Origin: Bacteroidaceae bacterium | GTDB taxonomy: Bacteria > Bacteroidota > Bacteroidia > Bacteroidales > Bacteroidaceae | DNA: 46,142 bases | NCBI GenBank assembly: GCA_017408685.1 | Contig: JAFQUE010000029.1 | Location: 1-46,142, forward strand | Reading direction: 5' to 3' | Part shown: positions 1 through 46,142 of the stretch, in pieces | How the letters are laid out: each line of letters starts with the position of its first letter | Numbering within the stretch: position 1 is the first letter of the stretch | Notes under the pieces: generated by a model | The model's input: only the letters and a program-made list of their open reading frames with translations | Databases searched by the model: none | Told to the model about the DNA's origin: nothing | Made by a program: the position numbers and the translations under genes

Positions 1-242
1 AAAGGCTGTTGCGACTGTTTTTGCAGTGCCGGGACCTTTTGCGTACTTTTCAGTCATGAAAAGTATGTGATAGAACGACAACAAGAAGAATAAACGACAA
101 CAGATTAAGGGTAAAACAAACCAAGGAATAACAGTTTTATTTAGTTGAATTATTTCGTACACACGAAATTTCTACTGAACCCTATTCTTTACATTGTAAC
201 CGCGGTGTTTTATAACTCTTTTTTGACAAAAGGTGCGTTATA

Positions 243-268
243 GATCCTTCGCTACGCTCCAGGATGAC
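243..268. repeat. REP-like dispersed motif
   Basis: The core GATCCTTCGCTACGCTCC is followed by AGGATGAC, so ATCCT and AGGAT form the arms of a short imperfect hairpin. Closely similar motifs recur in intergenic DNA of many unrelated bacterial genomes. Only one copy is visible in this window. It also holds the only GATC I noticed in the left 28 kb. Confidence 0.5.
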
Positions 269-427
269 AACTTCGCGCAATGAGAACTCCCTGCGCAACG
301 TAGTTGCTTGCCTGACGGCACCCTCTTTTCCATAAAACACAATATTAGAGATTTTCTAATTTCTATTTTTATAGTAGCAAGTTAGTTTTCCTATAAAAAA
401 ACACCTTGTTTCCGCCGTAAAAATATG

Positions 428-560
428 CATTTTTCCGATTCCCCGCAAATTTAAAACAGCGAAATCACCGATTCCCCGCAAATTTAAAACAAGCAATTCC
501 CCGATTTCCCGCAAATTTAAAACAGCAGAATCACCAATTTCCCGCAAATTTAGAAAGGTG
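428..560. repeat. 33-bp tandem repeat, four imperfect copies
   Basis: The motif CCCGCAAATTTA recurs with its G at bases 445, 478, 511 and 544, an exact 33-bp period. The unit is a multiple of three, so the minus strand reads as an 11-residue repeat (core LNLRGIGDFAV). That frame has only a TTG start at 547 and no recognisable domain, so I treat this as a DNA repeat rather than a gene. There are no unique spacers, so it is not a CRISPR array. Confidence 0.8.
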
Positions 561-647
561 TGCCGTTGGTCTGTTCCGTTTCAAGCGAATAATCAAGACT
601 TGCCTACACTTTTTCAAACGAATAAACAAAGATACAATACACTTTTC

Positions 648-2279
648 CTAACGAAAGACAGCCTCAATAAAGAGTTCTTCGCCTGTTGCGGGGTGAGAGA
701 ATGAGAGCGAGGAGGCATGCAGCATGAGCCTGTCGCCCGCATTGCCATAAAGCGCGTCGCCCACAATGGGACAATCGAGTCCCTCTTTGCATGCAGCATG
801 AACGCGCAACTGATGAGTGCGGCCGGTGAGTGGTTCAAACTGCACCAACGCGCACTCCTTGCCGTTGAGAAGGCGGGTTTCAACCACACAATAATTGGTA
901 ACAGCCTCTTTTCCGCCTTGAAAATCCACCCTTTGGCGCGGACGGTTCTCGTAGTCGGGCCACAAGGGAAGAGATATTGTTCCGCATGGCAGGGCGGGAA
1001 CGCCCTCGAGTAAAGCAATATACTCCTTGCGCACTTTGCGGGTGGCGAACATGCTTTGCATTGCCTTGTACATTTCCATGGATTTTGCAGCCACGAGCAC
1101 CCCCGATGTTGCCATATCCAGGCGGTGTACTACATGAATGTCGTTGCTGTTCATGGTATCGCGCAGCCACTGCTGCACCGATGTGCCGCCTACAATGCCG
1201 GGGACCGAAAGCACCCCCGACGGTTTGTCAACGGCAATGAGATAGTCATCCTCATAAAGCACACGCAGTGATGTTATGTTGCCGCCATGTTCAAGGGCAT
1301 TTTCCTCTACATCGAGTCCTTGCAGCATAAAAGAGAGGATTGGTTCGCACTTGCTCTTGCAAGAACCATAGAAACAGCCGTCGCGGCGCACTTCGCCCTG
1401 CGGGGAGTTGCCCACCCAGAATTCGGCCATGACAACAGGAGTGCAACCATGTTTGTAGGCATATTGCAACAATTTGGGTGCTGCACACTCGCCGGAACCG
1501 GCAGGCGGCAACACACCGCGGTGTTCCTTGAAGATTGAAAGCAGGTCCTTGGAGTCGCCCCTTGCATTCAACACTTTGAAATTGGTGAACAGCCACTCCT
1601 GAAGCGCTGCCGAACGACGCTTGCGTTCCTCCTTCATTGCAGCAATCCCTGCCTGTAGCGGCACTAACCTTTCACGGCATTCTTCAATGCGCTGTTGCCA
1701 CCGTTGCGTGGCACGCCTGAGTTCTGCCTTTTGAAATTGGCTCTCACGCACCAGTTGTGCCTCTTCACTTGCCGCAAGGTTGCCGCCTGCACGCAAGGCG
1801 TCACGCTCCCGCTTGCCCGCACGCATTGCTTCGCGCATTGCTGCAAGTTCCTGTTCCATTTCTGTTCTCAACGATTCCACAGCCATGGCGGCAACACGGT
1901 ATTCACCGCCCTGCTCCGTATTCCTTATCTTTTCGTTCAACAAGGAGATTCCGGCCTCCTCGCGTTTGAAATAGCCGGTGGGCGAAAGGAAATCGAACAC
2001 CGGCGGCACAAAGCCCGGCACATTGTTGCTGCCGGCCAACAGCCCGGAGAAGGCCGCAAAGTAACCGGGTTCGCCGGCGGGGTCGCGCACCACAAGCACA
2101 CCGAACATCTTGCCTTTGGCAGCCTCGGCGGCAACGGCCTCATCCCCGAGCAAAAAGGCACGCACCTCACAGGCCGCAGCAACGCACAGCGGGTGAGGCG
2201 AATAGTAGAACGGGTTATTGAACCGTGTGGGCGGTTCAACAGCCGAAATGTCTTCACGGAATCTATGCAGCAGTTGCAT
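648..2279 (-). CDS. RluA-family RNA pseudouridine synthase, large form
   Basis: The predicted product (543 aa) isomerises uridine to pseudouridine in rRNA or tRNA. The C-terminal half (about residues 337-543) is a complete RluA/RsuA-type catalytic domain. The HRLDMATSG motif places the catalytic Asp at residue 388, and GRTHQLRVH follows near the end. The N-terminal 330 residues carry a Lys/Arg/Glu-rich, probably coiled-coil segment (about 130-225) and a Cys-containing block (GCFYGSCKSKC, about 301-311). This long N-terminal form is seen in Bacteroidetes RluA-like proteins, and the RNA target cannot be deduced. The start ATG overlaps the stop of the upstream GH110 gene by one base (TAATG), so translation is probably coupled. 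Confidence 0.9.
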   Translation of the reverse strand: MQLLHRFREDISAVEPPTRFNNPFYYSPHPLCVAAACEVRAFLLGDEAVAAEAAKGKMFGVLVVRDPAGEPGYFAAFSGLLAGSNNVPGFVPPVFDFLSPTGYFKREEAGISLLNEKIRNTEQGGEYRVAAMAVESLRTEMEQELAAMREAMRAGKRERDALRAGGNLAASEEAQLVRESQFQKAELRRATQRWQQRIEECRERLVPLQAGIAAMKEERKRRSAALQEWLFTNFKVLNARGDSKDLLSIFKEHRGVLPPAGSGECAAPKLLQYAYKHGCTPVVMAEFWVGNSPQGEVRRDGCFYGSCKSKCEPILSFMLQGLDVEENALEHGGNITSLRVLYEDDYLIAVDKPSGVLSVPGIVGGTSVQQWLRDTMNSNDIHVVHRLDMATSGVLVAAKSMEMYKAMQSMFATRKVRKEYIALLEGVPALPCGTISLPLWPDYENRPRQRVDFQGGKEAVTNYCVVETRLLNGKECALVQFEPLTGRTHQLRVHAACKEGLDCPIVGDALYGNAGDRLMLHASSLSFSHPATGEELFIEAVFR

Positions 2280-4093
2280 TAATTGTTGTATTTGACATCC
2301 TTTTCGGGGTTGAAACCACCGTCAAAATCATTATTCTTTATTACTGCATTCTTGACACGTTCAAAAAGGAAACGGTAAGTATTCCAGTGGAAAGGCTTGT
2401 AGTCGTTGTTCTGTATTATCCTGTTGCCACGGAACAGAAGGCCGTCGAGCGATTTTGCATAGACAATGGGAGAATCGAATGTCTCGAAGAGATTGCCTTC
2501 GATAACCACGCCTTTGCCCTTCCCGCCATGGAAATATTTTGTCTGCGAGGCAAGGTCGGGGATTTCGGGATAGATTGAAATGATGGCATTGGTAAACTGG
2601 AACATGTTTGTGAGCGAGTTCACGAAACGGTTGCCGCGGATTATTACATTGCGGCATGCTCCAGTCTCGAACCAGCCGTTGCAATCGCCGCACAACAATA
2701 TTGCGGTACCCGATGTGTGGTCGAAGAAATTACCCTCGACGACAACCTTTTCGGGAGTGCTGAAAAGCGCTCCGCGGGCACGATTGTTACGCACCGTGTT
2801 TCCCGCAAACGTTACGCAGGGTGTCCATTCAAGGTTCTCCACACCATAATCGCCGTTGGCAATGTCGGCGGGGAGGGGCTTTTTGAAACGTATCCTGAAC
2901 TCCTTGCAACCGGCAACGTCCTTGCGGTCGTGGGGTTCGATATCCTCGATGACATTGCTGCCGGCAAGTTCCATGACAGATGACCTGACAAACTGTACCT
3001 TATCATCCTCATCGCCCCAAAAGAAACCATAAGACTGGCCATGCATGTAACGGCCTATAACCGTGTAGTCGTCAAGGCGTTGCACAATGCGCAGGTATGT
3101 ACCATGAACATTTATGGCGTCGTCCATCATGCCCTCATAAAGGCCGCCGGTAGAGACAATTTTGCCTTTGCAGCCCGAAAAGTGGGTAGCGTCGGCCTGT
3201 GTAGTGAAATAACGGCCGCTGCCTTCACGTATAGCCACATTGAATCCCTTGAGGGTTATATCCTCGCACACCTGCGCAAGAAGCCCCATACCCTCGGCAT
3301 AATGTACGGTTATGTTCTCAAGTCTTGTATCTTCGTTGCCATAGAGAAAAATGCCCGGTGTGGGGCGCGCATATGTGCGCATGGCAACAACCGTACCCGG
3401 CACAAGACGATGGTCGCGCCAGGGGGCACGGATGACACGCGGAGCAACCTCCTCGACACCTTGAGTACCTACACCGATATCGCTCGTTTGGTATACAAGA
3501 TGACCTGTAGTGCCGTCAAATGCGATTCCCCAGGCGGGAGTTGCCTCCCAGTTTTCGCCATAGACAACCAGACGGCCATCGGCAATCCTGTACTTTACAT
3601 ATGGCGCAATGCGGTATGTGATTACTCCCTTTTCGGTATCGTTCTCAAGCACCTCGACCTGTGTAATCTGTGGATGACGGGTGTCTATATTGAGATTCTT
3701 TATAGCGCAATCCTCGCAATCGAGCATGACAACAGGCAACATGCGGCCGTTCATGTAGAACGTGGAACCGCCACCGTCGAGCACGAAGTTTTCCATATCC
3801 TCGATGAGCACTGCCACATTCTTTGGATTGTCCTGGTCGTGATTGCTTATGTAAAGTTCCCTCACAAGCGCACAGTCAAAGAAGAAATCATAATCACCTT
3901 TATCGAAGCGGAGCACGCTGCTCTTGCCGTCACGTTCTTGCTTTATATGCTTTATTGCAGCGTCAACGGACTTCGTTACATCCTTGCCGGTATTGGGGTA
4001 AATACCGAAATCACTTGCATTATATACCTTCTGCGCAAACACCCCGACAGAGAGAAACGCACACAAGAGAGAGAGGGTAAAGAATCGTTTCAT
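2279..4093 (-). CDS. GH110 exo-alpha-1,3-galactosidase
   Basis: The predicted secreted glycosidase (604 aa) removes terminal alpha-1,3-linked galactose, as on blood-group B or linear B-type glycans. Residues 1-20 are a signal peptide. The rest is a right-handed parallel beta-helix of the GH110 family. Conserved acidic residues are present: Asp301 in TTQADATHFS and Asp324/Asp325 in GMMDDAINVHG. From memory, this 23-residue spacing matches the catalytic aspartates of characterised GH110 enzymes. The length fits the family. No SusC/SusD genes are adjacent, so this is not a classical polysaccharide utilisation locus. It is the first gene of a two-gene minus-strand unit with the RluA gene. Whether it cleaves only branched B antigen or also linear substrates cannot be told. 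Confidence 0.88.
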   Translation of the reverse strand: MKRFFTLSLLCAFLSVGVFAQKVYNASDFGIYPNTGKDVTKSVDAAIKHIKQERDGKSSVLRFDKGDYDFFFDCALVRELYISNHDQDNPKNVAVLIEDMENFVLDGGGSTFYMNGRMLPVVMLDCEDCAIKNLNIDTRHPQITQVEVLENDTEKGVITYRIAPYVKYRIADGRLVVYGENWEATPAWGIAFDGTTGHLVYQTSDIGVGTQGVEEVAPRVIRAPWRDHRLVPGTVVAMRTYARPTPGIFLYGNEDTRLENITVHYAEGMGLLAQVCEDITLKGFNVAIREGSGRYFTTQADATHFSGCKGKIVSTGGLYEGMMDDAINVHGTYLRIVQRLDDYTVIGRYMHGQSYGFFWGDEDDKVQFVRSSVMELAGSNVIEDIEPHDRKDVAGCKEFRIRFKKPLPADIANGDYGVENLEWTPCVTFAGNTVRNNRARGALFSTPEKVVVEGNFFDHTSGTAILLCGDCNGWFETGACRNVIIRGNRFVNSLTNMFQFTNAIISIYPEIPDLASQTKYFHGGKGKGVVIEGNLFETFDSPIVYAKSLDGLLFRGNRIIQNNDYKPFHWNTYRFLFERVKNAVIKNNDFDGGFNPEKDVKYNN

Positions 4094-4111
4094 AGTATCA
4101 GTTATTTTCTG

Positions 4112-4142
4112 CGAAGATAGTTATTTTCGGGTATTGCACAAA
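4112..4142 (-). promoter_or_regulatory. Promoter of the GH110-RluA unit
   Basis: On the minus strand a -33 TTTG (4139-4142) is followed after 19 bp by TATCTTCG (4112-4119), one mismatch from the Bacteroidetes -7 consensus TAnnTTTG. The GH110 start codon lies 18 bp downstream. Confidence 0.6.
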
Positions 4143-4193
4143 AGAGAAATCATACATTAATTTTTACAAAAACACGAAAAGCATTTAACAATG

Positions 4194-4225
4194 TTTGGAT
4201 ATAATTATTTTTCTTCGTAACATTG
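4194..4225 (+). promoter_or_regulatory. Probable promoter of the NPCBM-repeat gene
   Basis: A TTTG at 4194-4197 is followed after 20 bp by TAACATTG (4218-4225), one mismatch from TAnnTTTG. The ATG at 4247 follows 21 bp later. A TTG start at 4223 overlaps the -7 box, which argues against it as the initiation codon. Confidence 0.5.
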
Positions 4226-4246
4226 TGTATTCTAACAAACAAAGTT

Positions 4247-6484
4247 ATGGAACAGGAAACAAAAGAGACCTACCGCAAGAGACGCCTTGTCTTTATTGCG
4301 ATTGCAATAGGCCTGATACTGCTGGGCAACATGGATTGCGGCGGAGATTCGGACAAACGCAGCAAGGAAGAGGAATACACATATCTTGTAGACAATTTCA
4401 CTGCGACGGCCTCGAAGGATTTTGCCGCATACAAATACAAGGCAAAAGAGATTAGGATGTCAGGCGGAGAGGCCGGCGAGAAAGGTTTCATAATAAAAGA
4501 GAAGGGAGCGTATGCCACATTCAACATAGGCGGCGGTTACGAGACCCTCACATTCTATCTTGCCCACAATTATGAGTGTTCCGACGAGGTGGGAATTGTG
4601 ACCGTGCGGGCCGACGGCAAGAAGATACTCGACGAGAAGGTCCGGGGATATGAACCGCCGCGCAAATACAGCGTGGATGTGACAGGAGTCAATGAAATCA
4701 CATTCAAAGTGGAGGACGGCGACATATATGCCGTGGTTTCCGACGCAATCCTTTGGGAGGAGGGCGAGAAACCGGCCGATGTCCGCGAAACGCCACAAGA
4801 ACCCTCCGGGCCAACAGAACTTGTCAAGGAACTGGGACCATATTACATGAGCAGTCACATGGAAACAATCACGGAAAACTCCGACGCGCCCATAAGGTTG
4901 AACAGACAGGTATATAATTACGGACTGCGGGGCGACATGACCATGGCTCTCATAGGAGCATACGACGGGAAGGCCTATTTCAACCTTCACAGGCAATATT
5001 CAAAACTCAGTTTCATAGTCGGTTGCCGCGATGACATAGAGGGCGGAGGAGGTTCGGGCTGGGTTACAGTCAAAGCGGACGGGAAGACAATAGAGGAGAT
5101 TGAGATAAAGGAGGGCGACGTTGCCAAGCAGGTAGTCCTTGACATATCGGGTTGCGAATACCTCTCTTTCCACACCCAACAGATTGAAGGGGATTCGTAT
5201 GCGGAAATTACGAAAATAATGGTCTACCCCGAAGGGGATGATGTTGCCGAGCAGTTGGAAAACGGCATTGCACCACCCGACCCGCGGCTGAAGGAACTCC
5301 CCGACGCATGCAAACTCATTTCCAACATTCCGCCCTACCAGGTCGTAGGCAGGGTCAACAAGCAGATTTACGACGGCGCTTCGGACCATATAACATTCTC
5401 CATGGGCGGGTACAAGTTCTCCGAGGGAATAATCCTGTACCAGACAGCCTCGTTCTGGGATGACAATCTCTCGGCTTGCGCGACCTTTGACCTGGGCAAC
5501 GAATTTGACTATGTAAGTTTCACGACAGGATATATTGGCAAAAGTTGGAACATGAACGATGATGTACTTATGGTATTTGCCGATGATGAACTTGTATTCT
5601 CAGCACCACTGATTGCAACATACCCCAACCGGCACTACGTTGTTCCAATAAACAAATGCCGCTCCTTGCGGTTTGCAAACAGAGGTTGCGGCAGGCTCGA
5701 TGTCGCCGCATTCGGTATTGCCGACATTGTTGTCTACAGAGGCGAACCGGCAGAAAACGACCTTTTTGTACATCCCGAACCGGATTGCCCGCACAAGATA
5801 GACCTCATAGACCTCGGACGCCCGTATATCCACTATGTATCTACGATGTCGGACGATAAGGAAGAACTTATATACGACGGAAGTTCAAAGAAGAACTACT
5901 TTGACCTGAACGGCGAACGGATATACAAAGGATTCATACTGCAGACAAGCACACACTTCTCGCTTGATTTCGGTGTTCTTGGAGATGACAACGGCGCAGA
6001 CGCCGCAGCAGCGGGCATTGTGGGAGCAACGGCATTAGGTGCCTCTTTTGTGGCAACGGGAGCCGCAATAGGCGGTGCTACAGTGGGAACGACAGTGGCC
6101 CCGCTTGGTGCGTTGTTGCTGCTTGCGGCCGGAGGCGAGGCTGTGGAGAACTCCTTGGCGGCTTTCAATACCTACGGAGAGTACAACGCTGTGACATTCA
6201 AGGTGGGCTGCCTGCCTTTATCACGCGCGAAGTCCGAGGAACCCGAACATCTGATGATTGGCGCCGACCACAATGTCATGGCCAACATCGCCTTGTATGA
6301 AAACATGGAACCACAGGAAATCACTGTCCCCATCAACGGTTGCGAACAGTTGATATTCTGGCTCGCGAATACAGGCGGAACATCGGCACAATATGTTATA
6401 TATGACATTGTTGTAACGAAAGACAAACTTCCGCTCGACATCCCCGAGGCAGCACGCTTGGAACTGCCCGTTGCCGACGAATAG
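4247..6484 (+). CDS. Membrane-anchored protein with NPCBM-like repeats
   Basis: The 745-aa product has an N-terminal hydrophobic anchor at residues 14-32, preceded by positive charges. Four tandem beta-rich modules follow (about 75-175, 190-330, 345-500 and 515-735). Each has the pattern of the NPCBM carbohydrate-binding fold: a FDLG/YATFNIGG-like strand, YVSFTTG/LTFYLAH, then ADGK/ADDE and a final I-V-V-Y strand. No catalytic domain is visible, so glycan binding or a cell-surface structural role is an inference from the fold. The fourth module is interrupted by a Gly/Ala-rich hydrophobic block (about 580-632) that its sister repeats lack. I chose the ATG at 4247 because the upstream TTG overlaps a promoter box. 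It is a single-gene transcript with a strong terminator downstream. Confidence 0.7.
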   Translation: MEQETKETYRKRRLVFIAIAIGLILLGNMDCGGDSDKRSKEEEYTYLVDNFTATASKDFAAYKYKAKEIRMSGGEAGEKGFIIKEKGAYATFNIGGGYETLTFYLAHNYECSDEVGIVTVRADGKKILDEKVRGYEPPRKYSVDVTGVNEITFKVEDGDIYAVVSDAILWEEGEKPADVRETPQEPSGPTELVKELGPYYMSSHMETITENSDAPIRLNRQVYNYGLRGDMTMALIGAYDGKAYFNLHRQYSKLSFIVGCRDDIEGGGGSGWVTVKADGKTIEEIEIKEGDVAKQVVLDISGCEYLSFHTQQIEGDSYAEITKIMVYPEGDDVAEQLENGIAPPDPRLKELPDACKLISNIPPYQVVGRVNKQIYDGASDHITFSMGGYKFSEGIILYQTASFWDDNLSACATFDLGNEFDYVSFTTGYIGKSWNMNDDVLMVFADDELVFSAPLIATYPNRHYVVPINKCRSLRFANRGCGRLDVAAFGIADIVVYRGEPAENDLFVHPEPDCPHKIDLIDLGRPYIHYVSTMSDDKEELIYDGSSKKNYFDLNGERIYKGFILQTSTHFSLDFGVLGDDNGADAAAAGIVGATALGASFVATGAAIGGATVGTTVAPLGALLLLAAGGEAVENSLAAFNTYGEYNAVTFKVGCLPLSRAKSEEPEHLMIGADHNVMANIALYENMEPQEITVPINGCEQLIFWLANTGGTSAQYVIYDIVVTKDKLPLDIPEAARLELPVADE

Positions 6485-6584
6485 GAGCAAACTGCAAAAG
6501 GTCCAAAACCTTTGTAGTCCCTTTGCGCCTTTTTGTGCCTTTTTGCCCTTTTGGCCTTTGCCTTTGCAGCCTCTGCCATAATGG

Positions 6585-6612
6585 CAGTGCCACTCTTTTT
6601 GGCACTGTTTTT
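6585..6612 (+). terminator. Rho-independent terminator
   Basis: CAGTGCCA (6585-6592) pairs perfectly with TGGCACTG (6600-6607) across a 7-nt loop and is followed directly by five T residues. It ends the transcript of the NPCBM-repeat gene. Confidence 0.85.
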
Positions 6613-6677
6613 GCGGTTTACTGTACAAAGCGAGGAGTTTTTCTCTATTTTTATATAAGGAAATCACATTTTATCAC

Positions 6678-6685
6678 TATCTTTG
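6678..6685 (+). promoter_or_regulatory. Putative -7 box of secA
   Basis: TATCTTTG is an exact match to TAnnTTTG and lies 78 bp before the secA ATG. I see no clear TTTG at the -33 position. Confidence 0.55.
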
Positions 6686-6763
6686 CATTTAGTGCGCGAA
6701 CCGCACCTTGGCAAAGAAAAAAACAGCAAACCGCCAATTTGGAAAATAAAAAAATACACAATA

Positions 6764-10075
<3,312 letters not shown>

Positions 10076-10097
10076 GAAAAACACAAACAACAGCATT

Positions 10098-10532: not shown

Positions 10533-10545
10533 CATTACCAATTAT

Positions 10546-10577
10546 GCAGCAGCACAGAACGTGCTGCTGCTTTTTTT
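10546..10577 (+). terminator. Terminator of the secA unit
   Basis: GCAGCAGCAC (10546-10555) and GTGCTGCTGC (10561-10570) form a perfect 10-bp stem with a 5-nt loop, followed by seven T residues. Confidence 0.93.
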
Positions 10578-10662
10578 ACAGTCTTTGCCGCCTTTTCAAC
10601 CACCTCAATCACTAAAAAATATTAACAACGACGCTTTTGGAACAAATAACTTTGAAAACTTT

Positions 10663-10693: not shown

Positions 10694-10701
10694 CAAACGA
10701 T

Positions 10702-36510: not shown

Positions 36511-36523
36511 AATTATCGGAATA

Positions 36524-36826: not shown

Positions 36827-36857
36827 GGTACGTTATTAAGGACGCAAATATTATAGT

Positions 36858-36884
36858 CGGCTGCCACCCCATTGGTGGCAGCCG
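36858..36884 (+). terminator. Terminator-like hairpin after the DUF3467 gene
   Basis: An 11-bp perfect stem (36858-36868/36874-36884) has a 5-nt loop. The T-run after it is weak. Confidence 0.6.
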
Positions 36885-37033
36885 CCTAATTTGACGTTTA
36901 TGGGGGGCGCATCGCCGTGGGGTGTGCCGTAAAATGACTATACTCGGTGGGCGTCGGGCCGGGTACAAGGAAAGAGCCGTCAGTCGGCCCGACCTCTTTG
37001 CGAGCGGCAGCTTGTTAAGGATGCTTATATATT

Positions 37034-37072
37034 TAATCGGGCCGTTACGCATTGATGGTAACGGCCCGATTA
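37034..37072 (-). terminator. Terminator-like hairpin after the sulfatase gene
   Basis: A 15-bp perfect stem (37034-37048/37058-37072) has a 9-nt loop and lies 25 bp past the sulfatase stop on the minus strand. The downstream tract is AT-rich but not a pure T-run. Confidence 0.6.
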
Positions 37073-37096
37073 GGGGTCTGTGCACGCGGGGCGCTA

Positions 37097-38611
37097 TTAG
37101 TTGGCCGAGGGCATTGTTACTTGGAACATCGAGCTGTGTGTGTGCTCGCGCAGCAGAATATCTTTCATCTTTTTAAGAATATCGGGATACTGTGATGCAA
37201 TGTTCTTGTCCTCGTGAACGTCGTTGGCAAGGTCGTAGAGGCTGCACTGTCCGTTCTGTACAACCATCTTCCAATTGCCCATACGCAGAGCCATCATATT
37301 CGTCTCGTGGAACTCCCAATAGAGAAATTCGTGTGCCTCTTGGTTGCCCTCGCCCAGAAGCGTGGGGGCAAATGAGAGACCGTCGAAATAGTCGTTCTTG
37401 AGGCTCTTGTTGCTGTAACGCTCGATGTAATTGTCGATGCCTGCAATGTCGCAGAATGTGGGCATAAGGTCGTAGAATGCCAGCTGATGGTCGTTCACTG
37501 TACCTGCCTCGACCTCTCCGGGCCACCAAGCGATGAAGGGCACGCGTATGCCACCCTCTGTGGTCGAGCGCTTTGTGCCGCGCAGCAGTTTCTCGGTGTT
37601 AAAATAGTCGGGGTCGGCGCCACCCTCGGTGTGGGGGCCGTTGTCGCTGGTGAAGATTACGAGTGTGTTCTTGTCGAAGCCTTTCTCTTTGAGCTTTTCA
37701 AGAATCTCGCCTACGTAGGCGTCCAGACGGGTTACCATTGCAGCAAATTGTTGGTGTCCGCAGTCGGTGGGGTTGTAGCGCGAGCCTGCGTCGCCGCCGT
37801 ATGTCCTCTCGGTGCAGAATGTGCCTTGATAGGCCTTGAAAATGCTATCCTCGGGCTGTGCAAGCTCGGCGTGGGGCAGTGTGTAGGTGAATATTCCGAA
37901 GAAGGGCTTGTCGGCTGTCTGTTTGTCAATCCACTGCATTGCACGTTGGTGGATAAGGTCGGCTGTGTAGTCCTTGCGGTTCTTGTAGTCCTCGCCGTGC
38001 ATTCCGTAGGCAATGTTGTTTTGCAGAAGCTCGCGGCGCACCTCGGTGTCGCCTGCCTCGCGGCTGTAGGCGTTGAGGAAATTGGGGTAGTAGAGGTGTG
38101 CTTGGAACTGGCACATATAGCCGTAGTACTCGTCTATTCCGCGCTTGTCGGGGGTTGATATTGAGCCTTCGTAGCCGCCTGCCCATTTACCGAACATTCC
38201 TGTTGTGTAGCCGTTGTCTTTCATAATCTCGGGCAGGATGATGTGGTTGGGGTCGTAGGGCTCCTGTCCTGTCTGCTGGGGGTCGGTTGTCTTGCCGTAG
38301 GTTACCGAGCCTATGCGATACTCTTTGTTTCCGCGCACTTTGGTGTGTCCTGTGTGCTGTCCTGTCATAAATGATGCGCGTGAGGGGGCGCTCACGGGAC
38401 TGCCTGCGTAGGCTTGTGTGAATCTCATTCCCTCGGCGGCCATACGGTCGAGATTGGGGGTGCTTATGTATTGCTGTCCGTAGCAACCAACGTCGGCGTA
38501 TCCGAGGTCGTCGCACATTATGTAAATGATATTGGGCTTTTGTGCCTCCTGTGCCTGTACTGTTGCCGAGGCAAGCAGTCCGCATCCGAAAAGAATTAGT
38601 TTGTTGTCCAT
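37097..38611 (-). CDS. S-type sulfatase, exported
   Basis: The 504-aa exported enzyme (signal peptide about 1-20) cleaves sulfate esters, probably from host or dietary glycans. The signature SAPSRASFMTG puts a Ser (residue 74) at the position converted to formylglycine, so it needs an anaerobic radical SAM sulfatase-maturating enzyme, not seen in this window. The metal ligands Asp34-Asp35 in IMCDDLGYADVGCYG and the later FTSDNGPHTEGG motif are present, so it looks active. The substrate subfamily cannot be fixed. It lies 44 bp downstream of a lectin-like gene on the same strand. Confidence 0.93.
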   Translation of the reverse strand: MDNKLILFGCGLLASATVQAQEAQKPNIIYIMCDDLGYADVGCYGQQYISTPNLDRMAAEGMRFTQAYAGSPVSAPSRASFMTGQHTGHTKVRGNKEYRIGSVTYGKTTDPQQTGQEPYDPNHIILPEIMKDNGYTTGMFGKWAGGYEGSISTPDKRGIDEYYGYMCQFQAHLYYPNFLNAYSREAGDTEVRRELLQNNIAYGMHGEDYKNRKDYTADLIHQRAMQWIDKQTADKPFFGIFTYTLPHAELAQPEDSIFKAYQGTFCTERTYGGDAGSRYNPTDCGHQQFAAMVTRLDAYVGEILEKLKEKGFDKNTLVIFTSDNGPHTEGGADPDYFNTEKLLRGTKRSTTEGGIRVPFIAWWPGEVEAGTVNDHQLAFYDLMPTFCDIAGIDNYIERYSNKSLKNDYFDGLSFAPTLLGEGNQEAHEFLYWEFHETNMMALRMGNWKMVVQNGQCSLYDLANDVHEDKNIASQYPDILKKMKDILLREHTHSSMFQVTMPSAN

Positions 38612-38655
38612 AATATTCCTTTTGTTTTTTTGTTCTTATTTATTGCTCGGCCGGG

Positions 38656-41124
38656 TTACTTTTTTATGTATATCTTGCAGTTTTTGTAGCCCTTGTCGGT
38701 GGTGATGTTCACGATATATACTCCCTCGCCGATGCCGTCGGTGGATATTGTGTTGCCTTTGCTCTTTGCTACAAGTGCTGCATCGGGTGTGTAGAGTGCC
38801 ATTTGCTCTATTGTGGCGCTGCTTGTCGCTACGATGCTGCGGCCCACCTGCTCGACGCTCACCGTCTCGCTTGTCTCGGGGGTGGCGATGCTTGCCGATG
38901 TTTCGTCGGTGTTGGGCGAGAAATAGGCTTTAAGCGCTACGTTGTGCTCAAGGGTGAATGTGTATTCGGCGTTGGTCGATACAATTACGCCCTCTTGACG
39001 CCAGCAGATGAATTTTGCGTTGCCGATGGTCTGGGCTGTTGCGGTGAGCTCGGTGCCGCGTGCGTAGCTGTCGGCCACTGTCGAGAGTGTCGCGGTGCCG
39101 CGCTTCTTGTCGTTGACGCTGACGCTTGCCGTGCGCTCGCTCTGTGCCTCGACGGCGCTTATCGTAAAGTCGTAAACGAATCCCTCAACGTCGTCCTCGG
39201 CAAGGTCGAGGCCGTTGCTGTTGATGCGTACGCGCATACGGCTCTGCTTTTGTGCGGCCCACTCGGGTACGCCGATTGTTGCCGATAGCTCTTTCCCGCT
39301 GATGCTCATTGCCTCGGTTGTCTCGAATATTCCGTCGCAATTCCAGTCGAAATAGCAGTTGGCGGTGAGGTCGGCGGCTGCGTTGTTCTTGAGCGTTGCG
39401 CTAACCTCGAAGCTCTTGCCGAGGGCAACAGCAGCCTTGTCGGCCGAGTAGAACAGATGCCACGTCGAGGGCTTTGCGCTTGTCTTATAGATAAGATTGT
39501 CGGGGGTATCCTCGCCTGCGACATTGAGCAGTGTCAGATAGTTGGCTCCGGCACGTCCGCAGGGGTTGTTGTAAATTTGGTTGTTGCGTGCATAGAGGCT
39601 GCGCAGACGGTTGAAGCGGAAGAGGCTCTCGCCGTCGATGTTCAGTGTGTCGCTGCCGCTTGTGAAGAAGAAATATCCGTCGTGCTCTTTGCTTGCCTGT
39701 ACTTTCCAGCGTGTATCGCTGCCCTCGGCTGCTGCAACGGCACCATTGACAATCCCTACTACTGTTGCGGGTTTTGCTGCCGATGCTATCTGCCAGCCGC
39801 TGCTGTTGTTTGTGCCCACAAAGTACCACTCTTGGTTGTTGTCGAATTGGTCGGCACTGCTCATTGCGAGTGTGCCCTCGCCGAGGGTTACGTTCTTTCC
39901 GCTCATCCCCTCGATATTGTAGCTTGTGCCTATTGAGCCTATGGCTGCGCTTGCGTCAAAGGGGCGAATCTCGTAGAGGTCCTCGGTCTCGACGAGTTTC
40001 CAATATGAACCTACGCGTGATGTGCCTGCCTGCCAAGTAATTACGTATGTCGAGGCTCCGTCCTTGTTCAGTGCACGGGGGCCTGCGCTCTCTTTGTCAT
40101 AGCTTGTGCAGTCGGTCGAGCTGAAATAGTGGCATCCCGCAATCTCGCCGCTCGTGGCCGATGTTTTAGCTACGTAATATTCGGTGGGAGTGTCGGTGGT
40201 GGTTATTCTTGATGCCGATGAGGGGGTCTTGTTGCAACTGCCAATGTAATTGCCTGTGGCTGTGTTTTTTATGTAGAAGCAATTATCTTTGTCGGTGGGG
40301 ATGAACATCCAGAATTGTGCCTTTGTAACATCGGCGCCCTCGACGGTCATATATCCGTCGGCATTCTCGGTTATGTAGTTTGTGCCTGTGTTTTTCCACT
40401 GTATGTAGTAGATTTTTCCTTCGCTGTCGTCGGGCTCGGGAGTGGGCTCGGGTTCGGGCTCAGGCTCAGGCTCGGGGTCGGGGTCGGTGGTTGTGCCGGC
40501 TGTGCTTAGTGTGATACCCGACAGGCCGAAGAAGCATCCTGCGTTTGCCGAGCCCTTTGTGATGGTCATTCTTACGACAATTGTGACCTCTGCCTCTACT
40601 GTGGCGTCGCTCTCTACCGTCCACACTTTGTGTACGTTGCCGCTCTCTCCGACGCCTGCTGCAATGTCAATGTCGTCGAGCCGGCCAAACTCGCTCAGCG
40701 CCTCGGCCGATGCTCCCTGCTCAAGGGCTACGTTCCATTGACGGGTAACACCGTCGCTGTTCTCTTGATAGTTGCTGCCGCCGTTAAGAGCGTGAATATC
40801 AAGGCCGATGCTATTGAATGTAAAGCCTGCGGGCACTCCGCTGATGCTCACTGTGAGCTCAATCGTGGGGTCGGTGTTGCCGTTGACATTGGGACACAAA
40901 ATAGTCTCGTTGATGGCATTGCCGCCGTTGGGCTTAAACTCGTGCGACGATTCAATCGTGGCCTTTGCCCCCTCGATAGGCGCTCCGTGAGCGTCGGCAA
41001 CATTGACTGTAACGCTGCCTGCATCTGTTCCCGTGCGGCTGAAGGTAAGTCCGATGCTCTGTGCCATAGATAGCTGTGTGGCGAGCATCAAAAATGTAAG
41101 TAATAAGAGGTGGATTCTTTTCAT
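38656..41124 (-). CDS. T9SS-exported lectin-like multidomain protein
   Basis: The 822-aa product has a signal peptide (about 1-22, LSMAQS). In order it contains an N-terminal beta-domain (about 25-205), a Pro/Glu linker (DPEPEPEPEPEPTPEPDD), a ricin/lectin-like region (about 230-550), a GEVED-type domain (about 565-665), an InlB-like repeat domain (about 680-745) and a C-terminal type IX secretion sorting domain ending in GVYIVNITTDKGYKNCKIYIKK. It is probably a surface glycan-binding or adhesion protein. The start is set at the Met before KRIHLLLLTF, since 20 upstream residues lack signal character. It is transcribed with the sulfatase downstream. Confidence 0.8.
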   Translation of the reverse strand: MKRIHLLLLTFLMLATQLSMAQSIGLTFSRTGTDAGSVTVNVADAHGAPIEGAKATIESSHEFKPNGGNAINETILCPNVNGNTDPTIELTVSISGVPAGFTFNSIGLDIHALNGGSNYQENSDGVTRQWNVALEQGASAEALSEFGRLDDIDIAAGVGESGNVHKVWTVESDATVEAEVTIVVRMTITKGSANAGCFFGLSGITLSTAGTTTDPDPEPEPEPEPEPTPEPDDSEGKIYYIQWKNTGTNYITENADGYMTVEGADVTKAQFWMFIPTDKDNCFYIKNTATGNYIGSCNKTPSSASRITTTDTPTEYYVAKTSATSGEIAGCHYFSSTDCTSYDKESAGPRALNKDGASTYVITWQAGTSRVGSYWKLVETEDLYEIRPFDASAAIGSIGTSYNIEGMSGKNVTLGEGTLAMSSADQFDNNQEWYFVGTNNSSGWQIASAAKPATVVGIVNGAVAAAEGSDTRWKVQASKEHDGYFFFTSGSDTLNIDGESLFRFNRLRSLYARNNQIYNNPCGRAGANYLTLLNVAGEDTPDNLIYKTSAKPSTWHLFYSADKAAVALGKSFEVSATLKNNAAADLTANCYFDWNCDGIFETTEAMSISGKELSATIGVPEWAAQKQSRMRVRINSNGLDLAEDDVEGFVYDFTISAVEAQSERTASVSVNDKKRGTATLSTVADSYARGTELTATAQTIGNAKFICWRQEGVIVSTNAEYTFTLEHNVALKAYFSPNTDETSASIATPETSETVSVEQVGRSIVATSSATIEQMALYTPDAALVAKSKGNTISTDGIGEGVYIVNITTDKGYKNCKIYIKK

Positions 41125-41181
41125 TTTATAAAAATTTAGATAATGAAACTTATATTTCTTTGAAGAAAAATCGGTTAATTG

Positions 41182-41213
41182 CAAAAATAATAAATTTTTG
41201 TCTAATATGCAAG
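41182..41213 (-). promoter_or_regulatory. Promoter of the lectin-sulfatase unit
   Basis: On the minus strand CTTG (41210-41213), a 20-bp spacer and TATTTTTG (41182-41189) approximate the consensus. The leader to the ATG is about 55 nt. Confidence 0.5.
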
Positions 41214-41632
41214 GCTCGCTTTATATTTTTCGTGGCCGTCGGGGTTGATGTTTTTTTGTTCGGGGCAAAGACCTGTGCAGCTTTTTTCTTCGCGGTGAAT
41301 GCAATTGAAATAATTGCCTGCAATCTGTTTTATTCTTCTTTTTTGCCGACTTTTATATATAGCACTGCCTATTCGTCCGATATATAATAAATAAGGTATA
41401 TAAGCACGAAAATCCTAAGACTGCCGGCCCCGTGCAGAAAATCATATAATATATAGTCGGTAATAAAAATCAATCGCTATTTGCACTCTTTTTTTTAGAT
41501 ACCCCCCCCTAATTTGTGAAAATAACAACTAAATAACCTTTTTTTCAGCCCTGTAAGCATATATTTTACGTCGATTTTTTAGGCAAACGACAAAAAATGG
41601 ATAAATAGTTTTTTCATTCGGAAAATAATATC

Positions 41633-41640
41633 TATCTTTG
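41633..41640 (+). promoter_or_regulatory. -7 box of the str operon
   Basis: TATCTTTG lies 77 bp upstream of the rpsL ATG. The -33 region is T-rich without a clear TTTG. Confidence 0.65.
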
Positions 41641-41717
41641 CAAGCCAAAATGCGCGAAAGTGCAAACTAATGTAGTAATTACTTAAAAAATAATATATAA
41701 CTAAAAAAATTATCAAA

Positions 41718-42098
41718 ATGCCTACAATTCAGCAATTAGTAAGAAAAGGCAGGGAAGTATTGGTAGAGAAGAGCAAGTCGCCCGCGCTTGACAATTGTCC
41801 TCAGCGTCGTGGCGTATGTGTTCGTGTTTACACAACTACTCCCAAGAAGCCTAACTCTGCAATGAGAAAAGTAGCTCGTGTTCGCTTGACGAACCAGAAG
41901 GAGGTTAACTCTTACATTCCCGGTGAGGGCCATAACCTTCAGGAGCACTCAATCGTACTTGTACGTGGTGGTCGTGTAAAAGACCTTCCCGGTGTACGCT
42001 ATCACATCATTCGTGGTACATTGGATACCGCAGGTGTTGCCAACCGTACACAGCGTCGTTCAAAGTATGGTGCAAAGCGTCCTAAAGCTAAGAAGTAA
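41718..42098 (+). CDS. rpsL: 30S ribosomal protein S12
   Basis: S12 sits at the decoding centre of the 30S subunit. The 126-aa product has the full family pattern, with [11 protein letters not shown] at the start, [19 protein letters not shown] and the loop [29 protein letters not shown]. The Lys residues linked to streptomycin resistance when mutated look wild type. It is the first gene of the str cluster, with an unusually long gap of 188 bp before rpsG. Confidence 0.98.
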
Positions 42099-42286
42099 TT
42101 CATTGCATTTGGTAAAGCCTTAAGACAAGGGTAACAGGCTTTTAAAAATAAAGTTTTCCCTTGAAAGACATATTTTAATTAACCGTTTTGGTTTGTTGGA
42201 AAGTTATAAAGGTTGAGTAAATGCCTCGGTGGAGGCGTTGAAGAATTGCAATAACGCAACCCCAAACAAAACATTGAATTTTCAAA
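42099..42286 (+). promoter_or_regulatory. Structured rpsL-rpsG intercistronic region
   Basis: The gap of 188 nt contains a GCCTC/GAGGC hairpin (42223-42227/42232-42236). It is flanked by segments that can pair imperfectly (around 42185-42200, GTTTTGGTTTG, against about 42255-42275, ACCCCAAACAAAAC). This may be a control site for S7 translation, as known at the same place in E. coli, or a processing site. No terminator is evident. Confidence 0.4.
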
Positions 42287-42763
42287 ATGAGAAAAGCAAA
42301 ACCAAAAAAACGCGTGGTCCTGCCGGATCCCGTTTACAACGATCAGATGGTATCTAAGTTCGTTAACCACCTGATGTATGACGGAAAAAAGAACGTATCG
42401 TACACAATTTTCTACGGTGCTCTTGAGCTTGTTGCTAACAAAATGAAGAACGAGGAGAAGACCGCGCTCGAAATTTGGAAGCAGGCTCTTGAGAACATCA
42501 CTCCCAAAGTAGAGGTTAAGTCGCGCCGTATCGGTGGTGCCACTTTCCAAGTTCCTACTGAAATTCGTCCCGACCGTAAAGAGTCAATCTCAATGAAGAA
42601 TATGATTCTCTTCGCACGCAAGCGTGGTGGCAAGTCAATGTCCGAGAAGCTCTGCAACGAGATTATGGATGCCTACAACAATCAGGGTGGTGCTTTCAAA
42701 CGTAAGGAGGATATGCACCGTATGGCCGAGGCTAACCGTGCATTTGCACATTTCCGTTTCTAA
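42287..42763 (+). CDS. rpsG: 30S ribosomal protein S7
   Basis: S7 binds the 3' major domain of 16S rRNA and starts assembly of the 30S head. The 158-aa product has the typical [17 protein letters not shown] start, VARFVNHLM-like [31 protein letters not shown] and the C-terminal [12 protein letters not shown]. The length is normal. fusA starts 19 bp downstream. Confidence 0.98.
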
Positions 42764-42782
42764 TCCGTAATAGTATAAGAAA

Positions 42783-44876
42783 ATGGCAAACGATCTTCAA
42801 TTTACCCGTAATATCGGTATTAGTGCTCACATCGATGCCGGTAAGACTACTACATCGGAGCGTATATTGTACTACACAGGTCTTTCGCACAAGATTGGTG
42901 AGGTGCACGATGGTGCAGCTACAATGGACTGGATGGAGCAAGAGCAGGAGCGTGGTATCACAATTACTTCGGCCGCTACAACTACATTCTGGACTTGGAA
43001 GAACCAGCAGTATAAATTTAACTTGATTGATACTCCGGGACACGTTGACTTTACAGCCGAGGTTGAGCGTTCGCTTCGCGTGCTCGACGGCGCCATCGCT
43101 GCATTCTGCGCAGTAGGTGGTGTTGAGCCTCAGTCCGAGACTGTATGGCGTCAGGCTGACAAGTACAATGTACCCCGTATCGCATACGTCAACAAGATGG
43201 ACCGCTCGGGTGCCGACTATTTCTCGGTAATGCGCCAGATGAAAGAGATTCTTGGTGCGAACCCCTGCCCCGTAACAATTCCCATTGGTGCCGAGGAGAC
43301 ATTCAAGGGTGTTGTTGACCTTATCAGAATGAAGGCACTTGTATATGCCGATGGCAATCTCGACTACGAGGTTCGCGATATTCCCGCCGAGCTCGTTGAC
43401 GAGGCCAACCAATGGCGCGAGCACCTTCTTGAGAAGGCTGCCGATTTTGACGAGGAGTTGATGATGAAGGTTCTCGACGACCCCGATTCAATCACCGAGG
43501 AGGAGCTCATCGCAGCAATCCGTAAGGGTACCCTCGCAATGGAGATTACTCCTATGACTTGCGGTTCTTCGTTCAAGAACAAGGGTGTTCAGCCTCTGCT
43601 CGACTTTGTTTGTGCATTCCTTCCCTCGCCTCTGGATACAGCCGCTGTTGAGGGTGTTAACCCCAAGACCGACGAGACCGAGGTGCGTCGTCCCAGCGTA
43701 GATGACAAAACATCTGCTCTTGTGTTCAAGATTGCCACAAACCCTTTCGTAGGTCGTCTTATCTACGTACGCGTTTACTCGGGTAAGCTCGAGTCGGGTT
43801 CATACATCTTCGACACACGTTCGGGTCGCAAGGAGCGTATCTCACGTATGTTCCAGATGCACTCGAACAAACAGAACCCCATCGACGTTCTTCCCGCAGG
43901 TGATATAGGCGCCGTAATCGGCCTTAAGGATGTTCGCACAGGTGATACACTTTGCGACGAGGACGGCCCCATCGTACTTGAGTCTATGGACTTCCCCGAT
44001 CCCGTTATCTCGATAGCGGTTGAACCCAAGACACAGAAAGACCTTGACAAGCTCGCCAACGGCCTTGCCAAGCTCGCCGAGGAGGATCCCACATTTACCG
44101 TTAAAACCGATGAGCAGTCGGGTCAGACAATTATCTCGGGTATGGGTGAGCTTCACCTCGAGATTATCATCGACCGTCTGAAACGCGAGTTTAATGTAGA
44201 GTGTAATCAGGGACGTCCTCAGGTTAGCTACAAAGAGGCTATCACAGAGACCGTACAGGTTGACGAGACCTACAAGAAGCAGACCGGTGGTAAGGGTAAA
44301 TACGCCAAGATTCTCGTAACAGTCGGTCCCGCCGACGAGGACTTCAAAGAGGGCGGCCTTCAGTTCCTCAACGAGGTTAAGGGTGGTAACGTACCCAAGG
44401 AGTTTATCCCCTCGGTACAGAAGGGCTTCCAGAGCGCACTCAAGTCAGGTGTACTCGCAGGTTATCCTATGGACAGCCTCAAGGTAGTGCTTCTCGACGG
44501 TGGCTATCACCCCGTTGACTCTGACCAGCTCTCGTTCGAGGTTTGTGCAATTCAGGCATACAAGAACGCCTGCCTCAAGGCCAACCCCGTGCTTCTTGAG
44601 CCCGTGATGCGTCTCGAAGTAGTAACTCCCGAGGAGAGTATGGGTGATGTAATTGCCGACCTCAACAAACGTCGCGGTCTTGTACAGGGCTTCGAGACAA
44701 GCCGTACCGGTGCCCGCATCGTAAAGGCAATGGTTCCTCTGGCCGAGATGTTCGGTTACGTAACATCGTTGCGTACAATCACCTCGGGTCGTGCAACATC
44801 GTCAATGGTTTACGACCACCACGAGCAGCTGAGCGCTTCAATCACAAAGACAATCCTTGAAGAGCTTAAAAAGTAA
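42783..44876 (+). CDS. fusA: Elongation factor G
   Basis: EF-G drives ribosomal translocation using GTP. The 697-aa product has all five domains: G1 [10 protein letters not shown], the switch region [21 protein letters not shown], the NKMD-type [10 protein letters not shown], then domain II, domain III ([18 protein letters not shown]), domain IV ([17 protein letters not shown]) and domain V ([20 protein letters not shown]). The catalytic His of DTPGH is present, so it is a canonical GTP-dependent EF-G, not the GTPase-silent paralogue known in some Bacteroides. Its place between rpsG and rpsJ is standard. Confidence 0.98.
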
Positions 44877-44883
44877 ATAAAAA

Positions 44884-44919
44884 GCCTGTCGGTTAGCGAA
44901 TGACTCTTAACCGACAGGC
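44884..44919 (+). promoter_or_regulatory. Hairpin between fusA and rpsJ
   Basis: A 12-bp perfect stem (44884-44895/44908-44919) with a 12-nt loop starts 7 bp after the fusA stop. No T-run follows, so it is more likely a partial terminator, attenuator or processing site than a full stop. rpsJ starts 32 bp later. Confidence 0.55.
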
Positions 44920-44951
44920 AATTATAAATAATATTAACCAAAAAAAGAGAA

Positions 44952-45257
44952 ATGAGTCAGAAAATCAGAATCAAACTCAAGGCTTACGACCACAACCTCG
45001 TTGACAAGTCAGCCGAGAAAATCGTTAAGACAGTGAAGGCAACAGGTGCAATCGTTAGCGGTCCCATACCCTTGCCCACACACAAACGTATCTTTACAGT
45101 AAACCGTTCGACATTTGTAAACAAGAAGTCTCGCGAGCAATTCCAGCTCTCTTCATTCAAGAGACTCATCGACATTTACAGCTCGACAGCAAAGACAGTT
45201 GATGCTCTTATGAAGCTCGAGTTGCCCAGCGGTGTAGAGGTAGAAATCAAAGTCTAA
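44952..45257 (+). CDS. rpsJ: 30S ribosomal protein S10
   Basis: S10 is a 30S head protein and NusG/NusB partner. The 101-aa product has the conserved [50 protein letters not shown] and the ending [11 protein letters not shown]. It opens the S10 cluster. rplC follows after 43 bp. Confidence 0.98.
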
Positions 45258-45300
45258 TTAAACAAAGAACATTATTAACCACAATTAAATCAAAACTGAA

Positions 45301-45918
45301 ATGCCAGGATTATTAGGAAAAAAAATCGGAATGATGTCCGTTTTCGGTGCCGATGGTAAGAATATTCCATGCACTGTTATCGAAGCAGGTCCTTGCGCAG
45401 TTACACAGGTAAAAACTGTTGAGAAGGATGGTTATGCAGCAGTACAGGTAGGTTTCGAGGATCAGAAAGAGAGCCGCGTAAACCAGCCCCTTGCAGGCCA
45501 CTTCAAGAAAGCAGGTGTAACTCCCAAGAGACACTTGGCCGAGTTCAAGGATTTTGATACAGAGCTCAACTTGGGCGATGTTATCACAGTTGACCTCTTT
45601 GCTGATTCGGTTTATGTAACCGTAATCGGTACTTCTAAGGGAAAAGGTTTCCAGGGTGTTGTAAAGCGCCACAACTTTGGTGGTGTAGGTCAGGCTACTC
45701 ACGGTCAGCACAACCGCGCTCGCAAGCCGGGTTCAATTGGTGCTTGTTCTTATCCTGCAAAGGTGTTCAAAGGCCTTCGTATGGGTGGACAGATGGGTAA
45801 CGCACGTGTTACAACACACAACCTACAGGTGTTAAAAGTGATACCTGAGCACAACCTTTTGGTAATAAAAGGCTCTGTTCCGGGTTACAATGGTTCAATC
45901 GTAATTGTAGAGAAATAA
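45301..45918 (+). CDS. rplC: 50S ribosomal protein L3
   Basis: L3 is an early-assembly 23S rRNA-binding protein near the peptidyl-transferase centre. The 205-aa product has [40 protein letters not shown] and the Gln-containing loop [12 protein letters not shown], then [27 protein letters not shown]. Its stop overlaps the rplD start by one base. Confidence 0.98.
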
Positions 45919-46142
45919 TGGAACTCAGCGTATTAAATATAAAGGGTGAAAACACCGGAAGAAAGGTAACTCTCAACGAGTCTATCTTCGGCATCGAGCC
46001 TAACGAGCACGTAGTTTACTTGGACGTTAGACAATATCTTGCCAACCATCGTCAGGGTACCCATAAGTCAAAAGAGAGAAGCGAGATTTCAGGTTCTACA
46101 CGCAAGCTCGGCCGTCAGAAGGGCGGTGGTGGCGCTCGTCGT
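45918..46142 (+). CDS. rplD: 50S ribosomal protein L4 (5' part)
   Basis: The first 75 codons of L4 run off the window end. The sequence [20 protein letters not shown] followed by [43 protein letters not shown] matches the L4 N-terminal region that contacts 23S rRNA. The ATG overlaps the L3 stop (TAATG), so translation is coupled. Confidence 0.95.

What the first reader, a model, noticed from the sequence alone, without database searches (positions are those of the whole stretch)
1..46142. Sharp change in AGCT frequency near 28-29 kb
Reading by eye, I counted 11 AGCT sites in bases 1-28000, against about 110 expected from base composition. In the right part I counted 28 within parC, glyS and fusA alone (6.3 kb). 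The left genes reach this by codon choice: Glu-Leu is almost always GAA-CTN, and Lys-Leu is AAA-CTN or uses TTG, while the right genes write GAGCTC and AAGCTG freely. Both sides are core chromosome. Such depletion is typical of long-term avoidance of a restriction site (AluI type) and should be genome-wide. A break at the recombinase/tRNA-Leu region suggests either an assembly joining two genomes or a very large replacement.
Basis: partly seen in the sequence, partly recalled or inferred. Interest (0 to 1): 0.8.

Follow-up and report, generated by a model that had tools for sequence, protein, structure and literature searches.

The report
Contig joining two related gut bacteria
This stretch of draft genome is most likely two related gut bacteria wrongly joined during assembly, and the halves can be told apart because each species avoids its own short DNA word.

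Summary
CATG is a stronger mirror image: 158 left, one right. The window is a whole contig (C89) of a 95-contig, 86%-complete bin of an uncultured gut Bacteroidales genus. In 1.25 Mb read from the bin's other contigs AGCT is depleted (O/E 0.26) and CATG is not, so the left side is the resident genome. The right 18 kb has the signature of CATG-avoiding congeners. The bin holds resident-type copies of nine of twelve right-side genes, with the sites swapped (AGCT 43 v 4; CATG 0 v 56). A gene tree puts the right copy with G013/G016 and the resident copy with G004, a nearest relative of the left side. Best reading: an assembly chimera joined at about 28050-28160. The bin's largest contig reads as a perfect palindrome, another joining error. 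A large replacement is rejected, because resident copies remain. AGCT avoidance itself looks real, genome-wide and lineage-specific; no cognate methylase was identified. No reads were available to test the joint.

The parts
1..28049 (.). Resident-genome segment: AGCT-depleted, CATG-normal; collinear with G004:C104 in two blocks from 11573 to 27994 (the part of that contig that was fetched)
   Evidence: 79.5% identical to G004
25783..27993 (+). SurA-like peptidyl-prolyl isomerase, last gene of the resident segment
   Evidence: Pfam SurA_N_2 and Rotamase_2; 80% to G004 and G032, 34% to G013 and G016
28011..28049 (+). Perfect 19-bp hairpin with 1-nt loop, terminator-like, taken as the end of surA
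   Evidence: -35.7 kcal/mol, z -7.8; a hairpin also follows surA in G004 (read by eye, not folded)
28050..28159 (.). Inferred joint zone; 28082-28149 recurs as a short dispersed repeat in congeners
   Evidence: the block that follows surA in three clade-mates is absent from here on
28160..28601 (.). Mobile-looking cassette whose homology begins at exactly 28160 in three congeners, near their tRNA-Leu; taken as foreign side
   Evidence: G004:C50 and G007:C6 (about 2 kb from tRNA-Leu), G017:C12 (abutting a match to the tRNA-Leu flank)
28295..28591 (-). HTH antitoxin-like protein, 98 aa
   Evidence: Pfam HTH_3
28575..28901 (-). HigB/Gp49-like toxin of a toxin-antitoxin pair, 108 aa
   Evidence: Pfam Gp49; TIGR02683 below its cut-off
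29175..29257 (-). tRNA-Leu
29068..46142 (.). Foreign segment from a CATG-avoiding congener: AGCT normal, one CATG site
   Evidence: collinear with G016:C169 (from 29068) and G013:C10 (from 29163) as far as 36826
29341..30390 (-). S41/tricorn-like peptidase; resident copy on C48 (63% aa)
30393..31247 (-). DUF3316 protein; resident copy on C48 (55% aa)
31237..33912 (-). parC-like topoisomerase IV subunit A; resident copy on C48 (85% aa)
34182..35723 (+). glyS; resident copy on C48 (95.5% aa); AGCT/CATG 7/0 here v 0/15 there
35723..36319 (+). FKBP-type isomerase; resident copy on C48 (53% aa)
37097..38611 (-). Sulfatase-like protein; resident copy on C47 (84% aa)
   Evidence: (all matches below cut-off)
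38656..41184 (-). 842-aa protein with GEVED and InlB-repeat matches; resident copy on C47 (59% aa over residues 349-842)
41718..42098 (+). rpsL (named from position and size, no family search); resident copy on C32 (98% aa)
   Evidence: name inferred
42287..42763 (+). rpsG; resident copy on C32, which ends inside the gene (95% aa)
42783..44876 (+). fusA; no orthologue elsewhere in the bin (resident C32 stops just before it)

Best explanation
The contig is an assembly chimera. Bases 1 to about 28050 come from the resident species, which has purged AGCT from its genome. Bases from about 28160 to 46142 come from a second species of the same genus, which has purged CATG instead. The joint lies just after the surA terminator-like hairpin, at a short repeat that is dispersed in this genus and next to a mobile-looking toxin-antitoxin cassette and tRNA-Leu. 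Shown: two signatures, two phylogenetic affinities, resident duplicates of nine right-side genes, absence of surA's usual neighbour, and a second joining error in the same bin. Inferred: that the assembler made the joint at a repeat held by both genomes, and that the avoidance comes from past or present type II restriction-modification.
For: (1) AGCT 11/71 and CATG 158/1 switch in the same 2-kb stretch. (2) In 137 overlapping 10-kb segments of the bin's other contigs CATG is never below 18 and AGCT never above 22; in the window's five 10-kb segments that start at 28001 or later CATG is 0-1 and AGCT 39-42. (3) Nine of twelve right-side genes have resident-type copies on C48, C47 and C32; over the aligned parts AGCT is 43 v 4 and CATG 0 v 56. 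(4) S41 tree: window copy with G013, G016 and L132 (100/99); resident C48 copy with G004 (91/95). Left surA is 80% to G004 and G032 but 34% to G013 and G016. (5) surA and S41 lie on different contigs in 23 of 23 congeners that hold both (my tally of the tables). (6) The block after surA is conserved in G004/G032 (90.6% over 2.9 kb) and G042 (74%) but not in the window; a search of the bin with it found only its end repeat. (7) Contig C60 of the bin equals its own reverse complement at 6758 of 6758 bases for the ends and again for the centre.
Against: No reads or coverage could be examined, so the joint itself is not shown to be false. No second copy of the 28082-28149 repeat was found in the bin, so a repeat shared by both genomes is inferred. 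Resident fusA, rpsJ and rplC were not found. About 0.95 Mb of the bin, interiors of the longer contigs, was not read. Short low-CATG stretches also occur on C3, C22, C66, C69 and C83; those tested on C3 and C66 hold ATPase and nuclease genes or no known family, C83 holds thioredoxin-like genes, C22 and C69 were not followed. Point (5) is weak where contigs are short. The support of the C48-G004 pair is not at the starred level. The right-hand source species was not found; its nearest S41 relatives are 79-81% identical.
Confidence: 0.94

Rival explanations
1. A genuine recent insertion: the resident cell took up at least 18 kb of a congener's core chromosome beside a mobile tRNA-Leu/toxin-antitoxin site and now carries both copies.
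For: The joint zone does carry a mobile-looking cassette near tRNA-Leu, and no read evidence excludes a true join.
Against: It would make the cell diploid for parC, glyS, rpsL and rpsG, with no integrase recognised among the genes tested at the joint; 0 of 23 congeners show the two genes on one contig; the bin contains another clear joining error.
Confidence: 0.04
2. A very large allelic replacement: the right side replaced the resident's own segment.
For: Sharp, one-sided change of signature in core genes; fusA occurs once in the bin.
Against: Resident-type copies of nine of the twelve genes are still in the bin on C48, C47 and C32.
Confidence: 0.01
3. One genome with a regional change in word use, for example by expression level or replichore.
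For: The right side is rich in translation genes.
Against: glyS, a translation gene, keeps the resident pattern on C48 (AGCT 0, CATG 15); rpsL and rpsG on C32 have no AGCT but also no CATG, so they do not decide; secA on the left has one AGCT site in 3.4 kb. CATG at 0-1 per 10 kb lies far outside 137 segments of the bin.
Confidence: 0.01

Closest known systems
Chimeric contig from metagenome misassembly, as defined in the GUNC paper (PMC8201837, passages read)
   Same: Genomic fragments of two sources wrongly joined in one contig; the surplus genes are what that paper calls redundant contamination
   Different: Both sources are congeners of similar GC (0.49 v 0.51), told apart here mainly by two four-base words
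Restriction-site avoidance by long-lived or lost type II R-M systems (Rusinov et al. 2015, PMC4687349, abstract and two passages read)
   Same: Strong genome-wide lack of specific four-base palindromes; the abstract reports avoidance without a present system as a possible trace of a lost one
   Different: No cognate AGCT or CATG enzyme was identified here. CTAG lack is widespread irrespective of R-M (same paper)
Palindrome avoidance as part of genome signatures (Genome Biol 2009 10:R85, PMC2745766, passages read)
   Same: Single palindromic tetranucleotides helped to separate related organisms of near-identical GC
   Different: [quoted passage not shown] in this genus it is nearly all-or-none for CATG and strong for AGCT

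Membership tests
Chimeric (misassembled) contig | Two parts with different genomic origins | tested here: met
   Signature switch, discordant relatives, tree
Chimeric (misassembled) contig | Foreign part duplicates genes already in the bin | tested here: met
   9 of 12 right-side genes have a resident copy; fusA, rpsJ and rplC do not
Chimeric (misassembled) contig | Reads do not support the joint | not testable with these tools
   No reads available
Allelic replacement by a congener | Resident allele absent | tested here: not met
   Resident S41, DUF3316, parC, glyS, FKBP, sulfatase, 842-aa protein, rpsL and rpsG present
Integrated mobile element | Integrase or recombinase, and defined ends | tested here: inconclusive
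   No recombinase among the proteins tested near the joint; a cassette edge at 28160 recurs in three congeners
Type II R-M site avoidance (AGCT) | Genome-wide depletion of the site | tested here: met
   O/E 0.26 over 1.25 Mb of other contigs
Type II R-M site avoidance (AGCT) | Cognate methyltransferase in the genome | tested here: inconclusive
   No match to PF00145 or PF02086 in G000; one PF01555 match (C34, 654-aa frame) of unknown specificity; the bin is 86% complete
Type II R-M site avoidance (AGCT) | Sites lost in this lineage, largely by synonymous change | tested here: met
   3 of 17 sites inferred ancestral are kept v 13 of 22 for TGCA, but ACGT is also low, 1 of 10. Of 65 G004 sites lost here, 40 by synonymous and 21 by nonsynonymous change, 4 in gaps or between genes

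The most novel reading that the evidence does not exclude
The joint is genuine: a wild cell carries at least 18 kb of a congener's core chromosome, ribosomal protein genes included, as a second copy beside a tRNA-Leu/toxin-antitoxin site, still bearing the donor's purged-CATG signature. That would be a natural merodiploid of two species.
Probability: 0.04. Interest if true: 0.65.

Novelty: not a real feature. Interest (0 to 1): 0.25.

Why it matters
The contig should be split at about 28.05-28.16 kb before anyone reads synteny, gene transfer or gene content from it. Here two congeners of similar GC were told apart by which four-base palindrome each has purged, down to the neighbourhood of the joint; that could be a cheap check for chimeras between related species. 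The GUNC paper cautions that its gene-wise taxonomy is less precise between very close relatives, though it also says it detects species-level chimerism in practice (PMC8201837, passages read). The purging of different words (AGCT, CATG, GGCC, GCGC) within one genus is also a good system for asking how fast site avoidance arises.

Tried and rejected
Integron idea: contig C83 looked right-type and holds 62-bp repeats that recur in arrays in congeners. They are the signal-peptide starts of tandem thioredoxin-like genes (named by reading the translations; no family search), so this is not an integron.

Of nine proteins tested there, five have Pfam matches (ATPases, a PD-(D/E)XK nuclease, DUF2201) and four none. 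They look like accessory genes; whether they come from the same foreign species is not known. C22 and C69 were not followed.

Recombinase at the joint: not found among the proteins tested.

Methylase explanation: PF00145 has matches in 8, PF02086 in 15 and PF01555 in 18 of 31 genus genomes, drawn from a larger group. They do not follow CATG avoidance: G003, G009 and G010 avoid CATG but have no PF02086 match. The cause is left open.

Deamination of methyl-C as the cause of AGCT loss: 37 of 65 lost sites read AACT or AGTT, but synonymous changes in the commonest frame have the same form, so this cannot be told from selection.

Literature: the listings (15 of 48 papers shown; 8 of 8; 10 of 91; 4 of 4) showed no paper that uses palindrome avoidance to find chimeric contigs; that is no proof that none exists. 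Searches found the R-M lifespan and ruminant catalogue papers. Of five papers only passages, and for PMC4687349 also the abstract, were seen.
Full report
What was checked. The change is far too sharp for chance (P = 1e-18). A second word is more telling: CATG occurs 158 times up to 27711 and then once, at 45368 (P = 3e-33). GATC (1 of 50 expected in 1-28000; 6 of 50 from 29301 on) and CTAG (0 and 0) are rare on both sides. So the sides share two avoided palindromes and differ in the third: AGCT left, CATG right.

Where the window lies. It is the whole of contig C89 of G000, a 2.25-Mb, 95-contig bin, 86% complete with 3.9% contamination. The genome-contig scan returned 26 loci; the 15 nearest (59-81% identity in the S41 protein) are metagenome-assembled genomes labelled Bacteroidaceae or Bacteroidales, 13 of them from the RGIG ruminant-gut set. 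The scan may leave out the window's own genome, so its source is not stated here.

Which side belongs to the bin. I counted both words in the first 20 kb or less of all 94 other contigs (one, C57, is masked). By the thresholds of the script 79 were left-type, 1 right-type (C83, 3 kb) and 14 undecided, C57 included. Pooled over the 1.25 Mb read, AGCT O/E is 0.26 and CATG 0.88. In 137 overlapping 10-kb segments CATG never falls below 18 and AGCT never rises above 22; the window's five segments starting at 28001 or later have CATG 0-1 and AGCT 39-42. The left side is therefore the resident. Short low-CATG stretches on C3, C22, C66, C69 and C83 are exceptions. C83 is a set of thioredoxin-like genes with stretches up to 98% identical in other congeners; those tested on C3 and C66 are ATPases, a nuclease or unknown; C22 and C69 were not followed. 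No other stretch as long as the window's right side and with its signature was seen, and this one is physically attached to a resident contig. That points to an assembly joint and not to a binning error, with the caveat that about 0.95 Mb of contig interiors was not read.

Duplicates. The bin holds a second, resident-type copy of nine of the twelve right-side genes tested: S41 peptidase, DUF3316, parC, glyS and FKBP in the same order on C48, the sulfatase and the 842-aa protein on C47, and rpsL and rpsG on C32, which ends inside rpsG. fusA, rpsJ and rplC have no orthologue elsewhere in the bin. Summed over the nine pairs, word use is swapped: AGCT 43 (window) v 4 (resident), CATG 0 v 56; rpsL and rpsG contribute no CATG on either side. 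In glyS, 95.5% identical as protein, AGCT/CATG is 7/0 v 0/15.

Origins. The left is collinear with G004:C104 at 79.5% from 11573 to 27994; the right is collinear with G016:C169 (from 29068) and G013:C10 (from 29163) at 78-87% as far as 36826. Left surA is 80% to G004 and G032 but 34% to G013 and G016; right S41 is 79% to G013 and G016 but 64% to G004. In a 31-row S41 tree the window copy groups with G013, G016 and L132 (support 100/99), and the resident C48 copy with G004 (91/95, below the starred level). G013 and G016 avoid CATG (O/E 0.02 and 0.06) and not AGCT (0.82 and 0.82), as the right side does.

The joint. Homology to G004 ends at 27994. The hairpin at 28011-28049 is taken as surA's terminator, because a hairpin also follows surA in G004 (read by eye). 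In the resident's clade surA is followed by a conserved block (G004 v G032 90.6% over 2.9 kb, v G042 74%) that is missing here; a search of the bin with it found only its end repeat. The stretch 28082-28149 recurs in several congeners and was not found elsewhere in the bin. Homology of the toxin-antitoxin cassette begins at exactly 28160 in G004:C50 and G007:C6, about 2 kb from their tRNA-Leu, and in G017:C12, where it abuts a match to the tRNA-Leu flank. So the joint most likely lies in 28050-28160. surA and S41 are on different contigs in 23 of 23 congeners that hold both (tallied, S41 counted at 59% identity or more; G017 and G039, with only distant S41 matches, were dropped). Where contigs are short this says little; in G013 and G001 the S41 contig runs on for more than 90 kb past tRNA-Leu without surA.

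A second joining error in the same bin. Contig C60 (142,758 bp, the largest) reads as a palindrome: its first 6758 bases equal the reverse complement of its last 6758, and its central 6758 bases equal their own reverse complement; the rest of the arms was not compared. For the related RGIG genomes the source paper used MEGAHIT and IDBA-UD assembly with three binners (PMC8199421, passages read); that this bin was made so is not known.

The underlying biology. AGCT depletion looks derived in the resident lineage. None of 18 congeners shows it (lowest O/E 0.61, G007), nor do G032, G042 and G039, which with G004 are nearest in surA; one more distant named locus, L153, has 0.39 over 13.5 kb. Of 17 AGCT sites inferred ancestral in a 7.7-kb five-genome alignment, 3 are kept, against 13 of 22 for TGCA; ACGT is also poorly kept, 1 of 10. 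Over 16.4 kb, 6 of G004's 71 AGCT sites are kept, against 42% of non-palindromic four-base words. CATG avoidance (O/E under 0.2) occurs in 7 of 18 congeners; with a cut at 0.4 it needs at least 6 changes on a 25-row single-gene tree. Long-lived type II restriction-modification is the usual explanation, and avoidance can be a trace of a lost system (PMC4687349, abstract read), but no cognate enzyme was identified here.

Noticed in passing
G000:C60 (L078, L234, L235): The bin's largest contig, 142,758 bp, reads as a perfect palindrome where compared (6758 of 6758 at the ends and at the centre; centre after base 71379). G013:C59 shows mirrored gene positions of the same kind; its sequence was not read.
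   Followed up: partly
Congeners G001-G018 and named loci L130-L155: Congeners each purge a different extra palindrome: CATG in 7 of 18 (O/E under 0.2), GCGC in G018 and L143, GGCC in G012, L136, L138 and L143 (O/E under 0.4); GATC and CTAG are at 0.45 or less in all 18.
   Followed up: partly
window 1-184: A short dispersed repeat at the contig's start also sits at or near the ends of many other contigs of the bin, probably where assembly broke.
   Followed up: no
window 36319-36507: An intergenic repeat of about 190 bp on the foreign side has relatives of 78-87% identity on resident contigs C76, C1, C23 and C54: a repeat family shared by both species; no Rfam match.
   Followed up: no
L114:4770-7050 (G004:C50): 67-bp direct repeats, 88% alike and running into the flank of tRNA-Leu, bound a 2.2-kb segment that holds the toxin-antitoxin cassette; this looks like an integration footprint at tRNA-Leu.
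   Followed up: partly
L101 (G000:C83): Tandem thioredoxin-like genes whose signal-peptide starts are 74-77% alike as DNA; stretches up to 98% identical in other species of the genus.
   Followed up: partly
L084 (G000:C66) 2000-17000 and L021 (G000:C3) 6000-10157: Low-CATG stretches with AAA ATPases, a PD-(D/E)XK nuclease and DUF2201 proteins in the resident bin; possibly an accessory or defence-like island acquired from elsewhere.
   Followed up: partly
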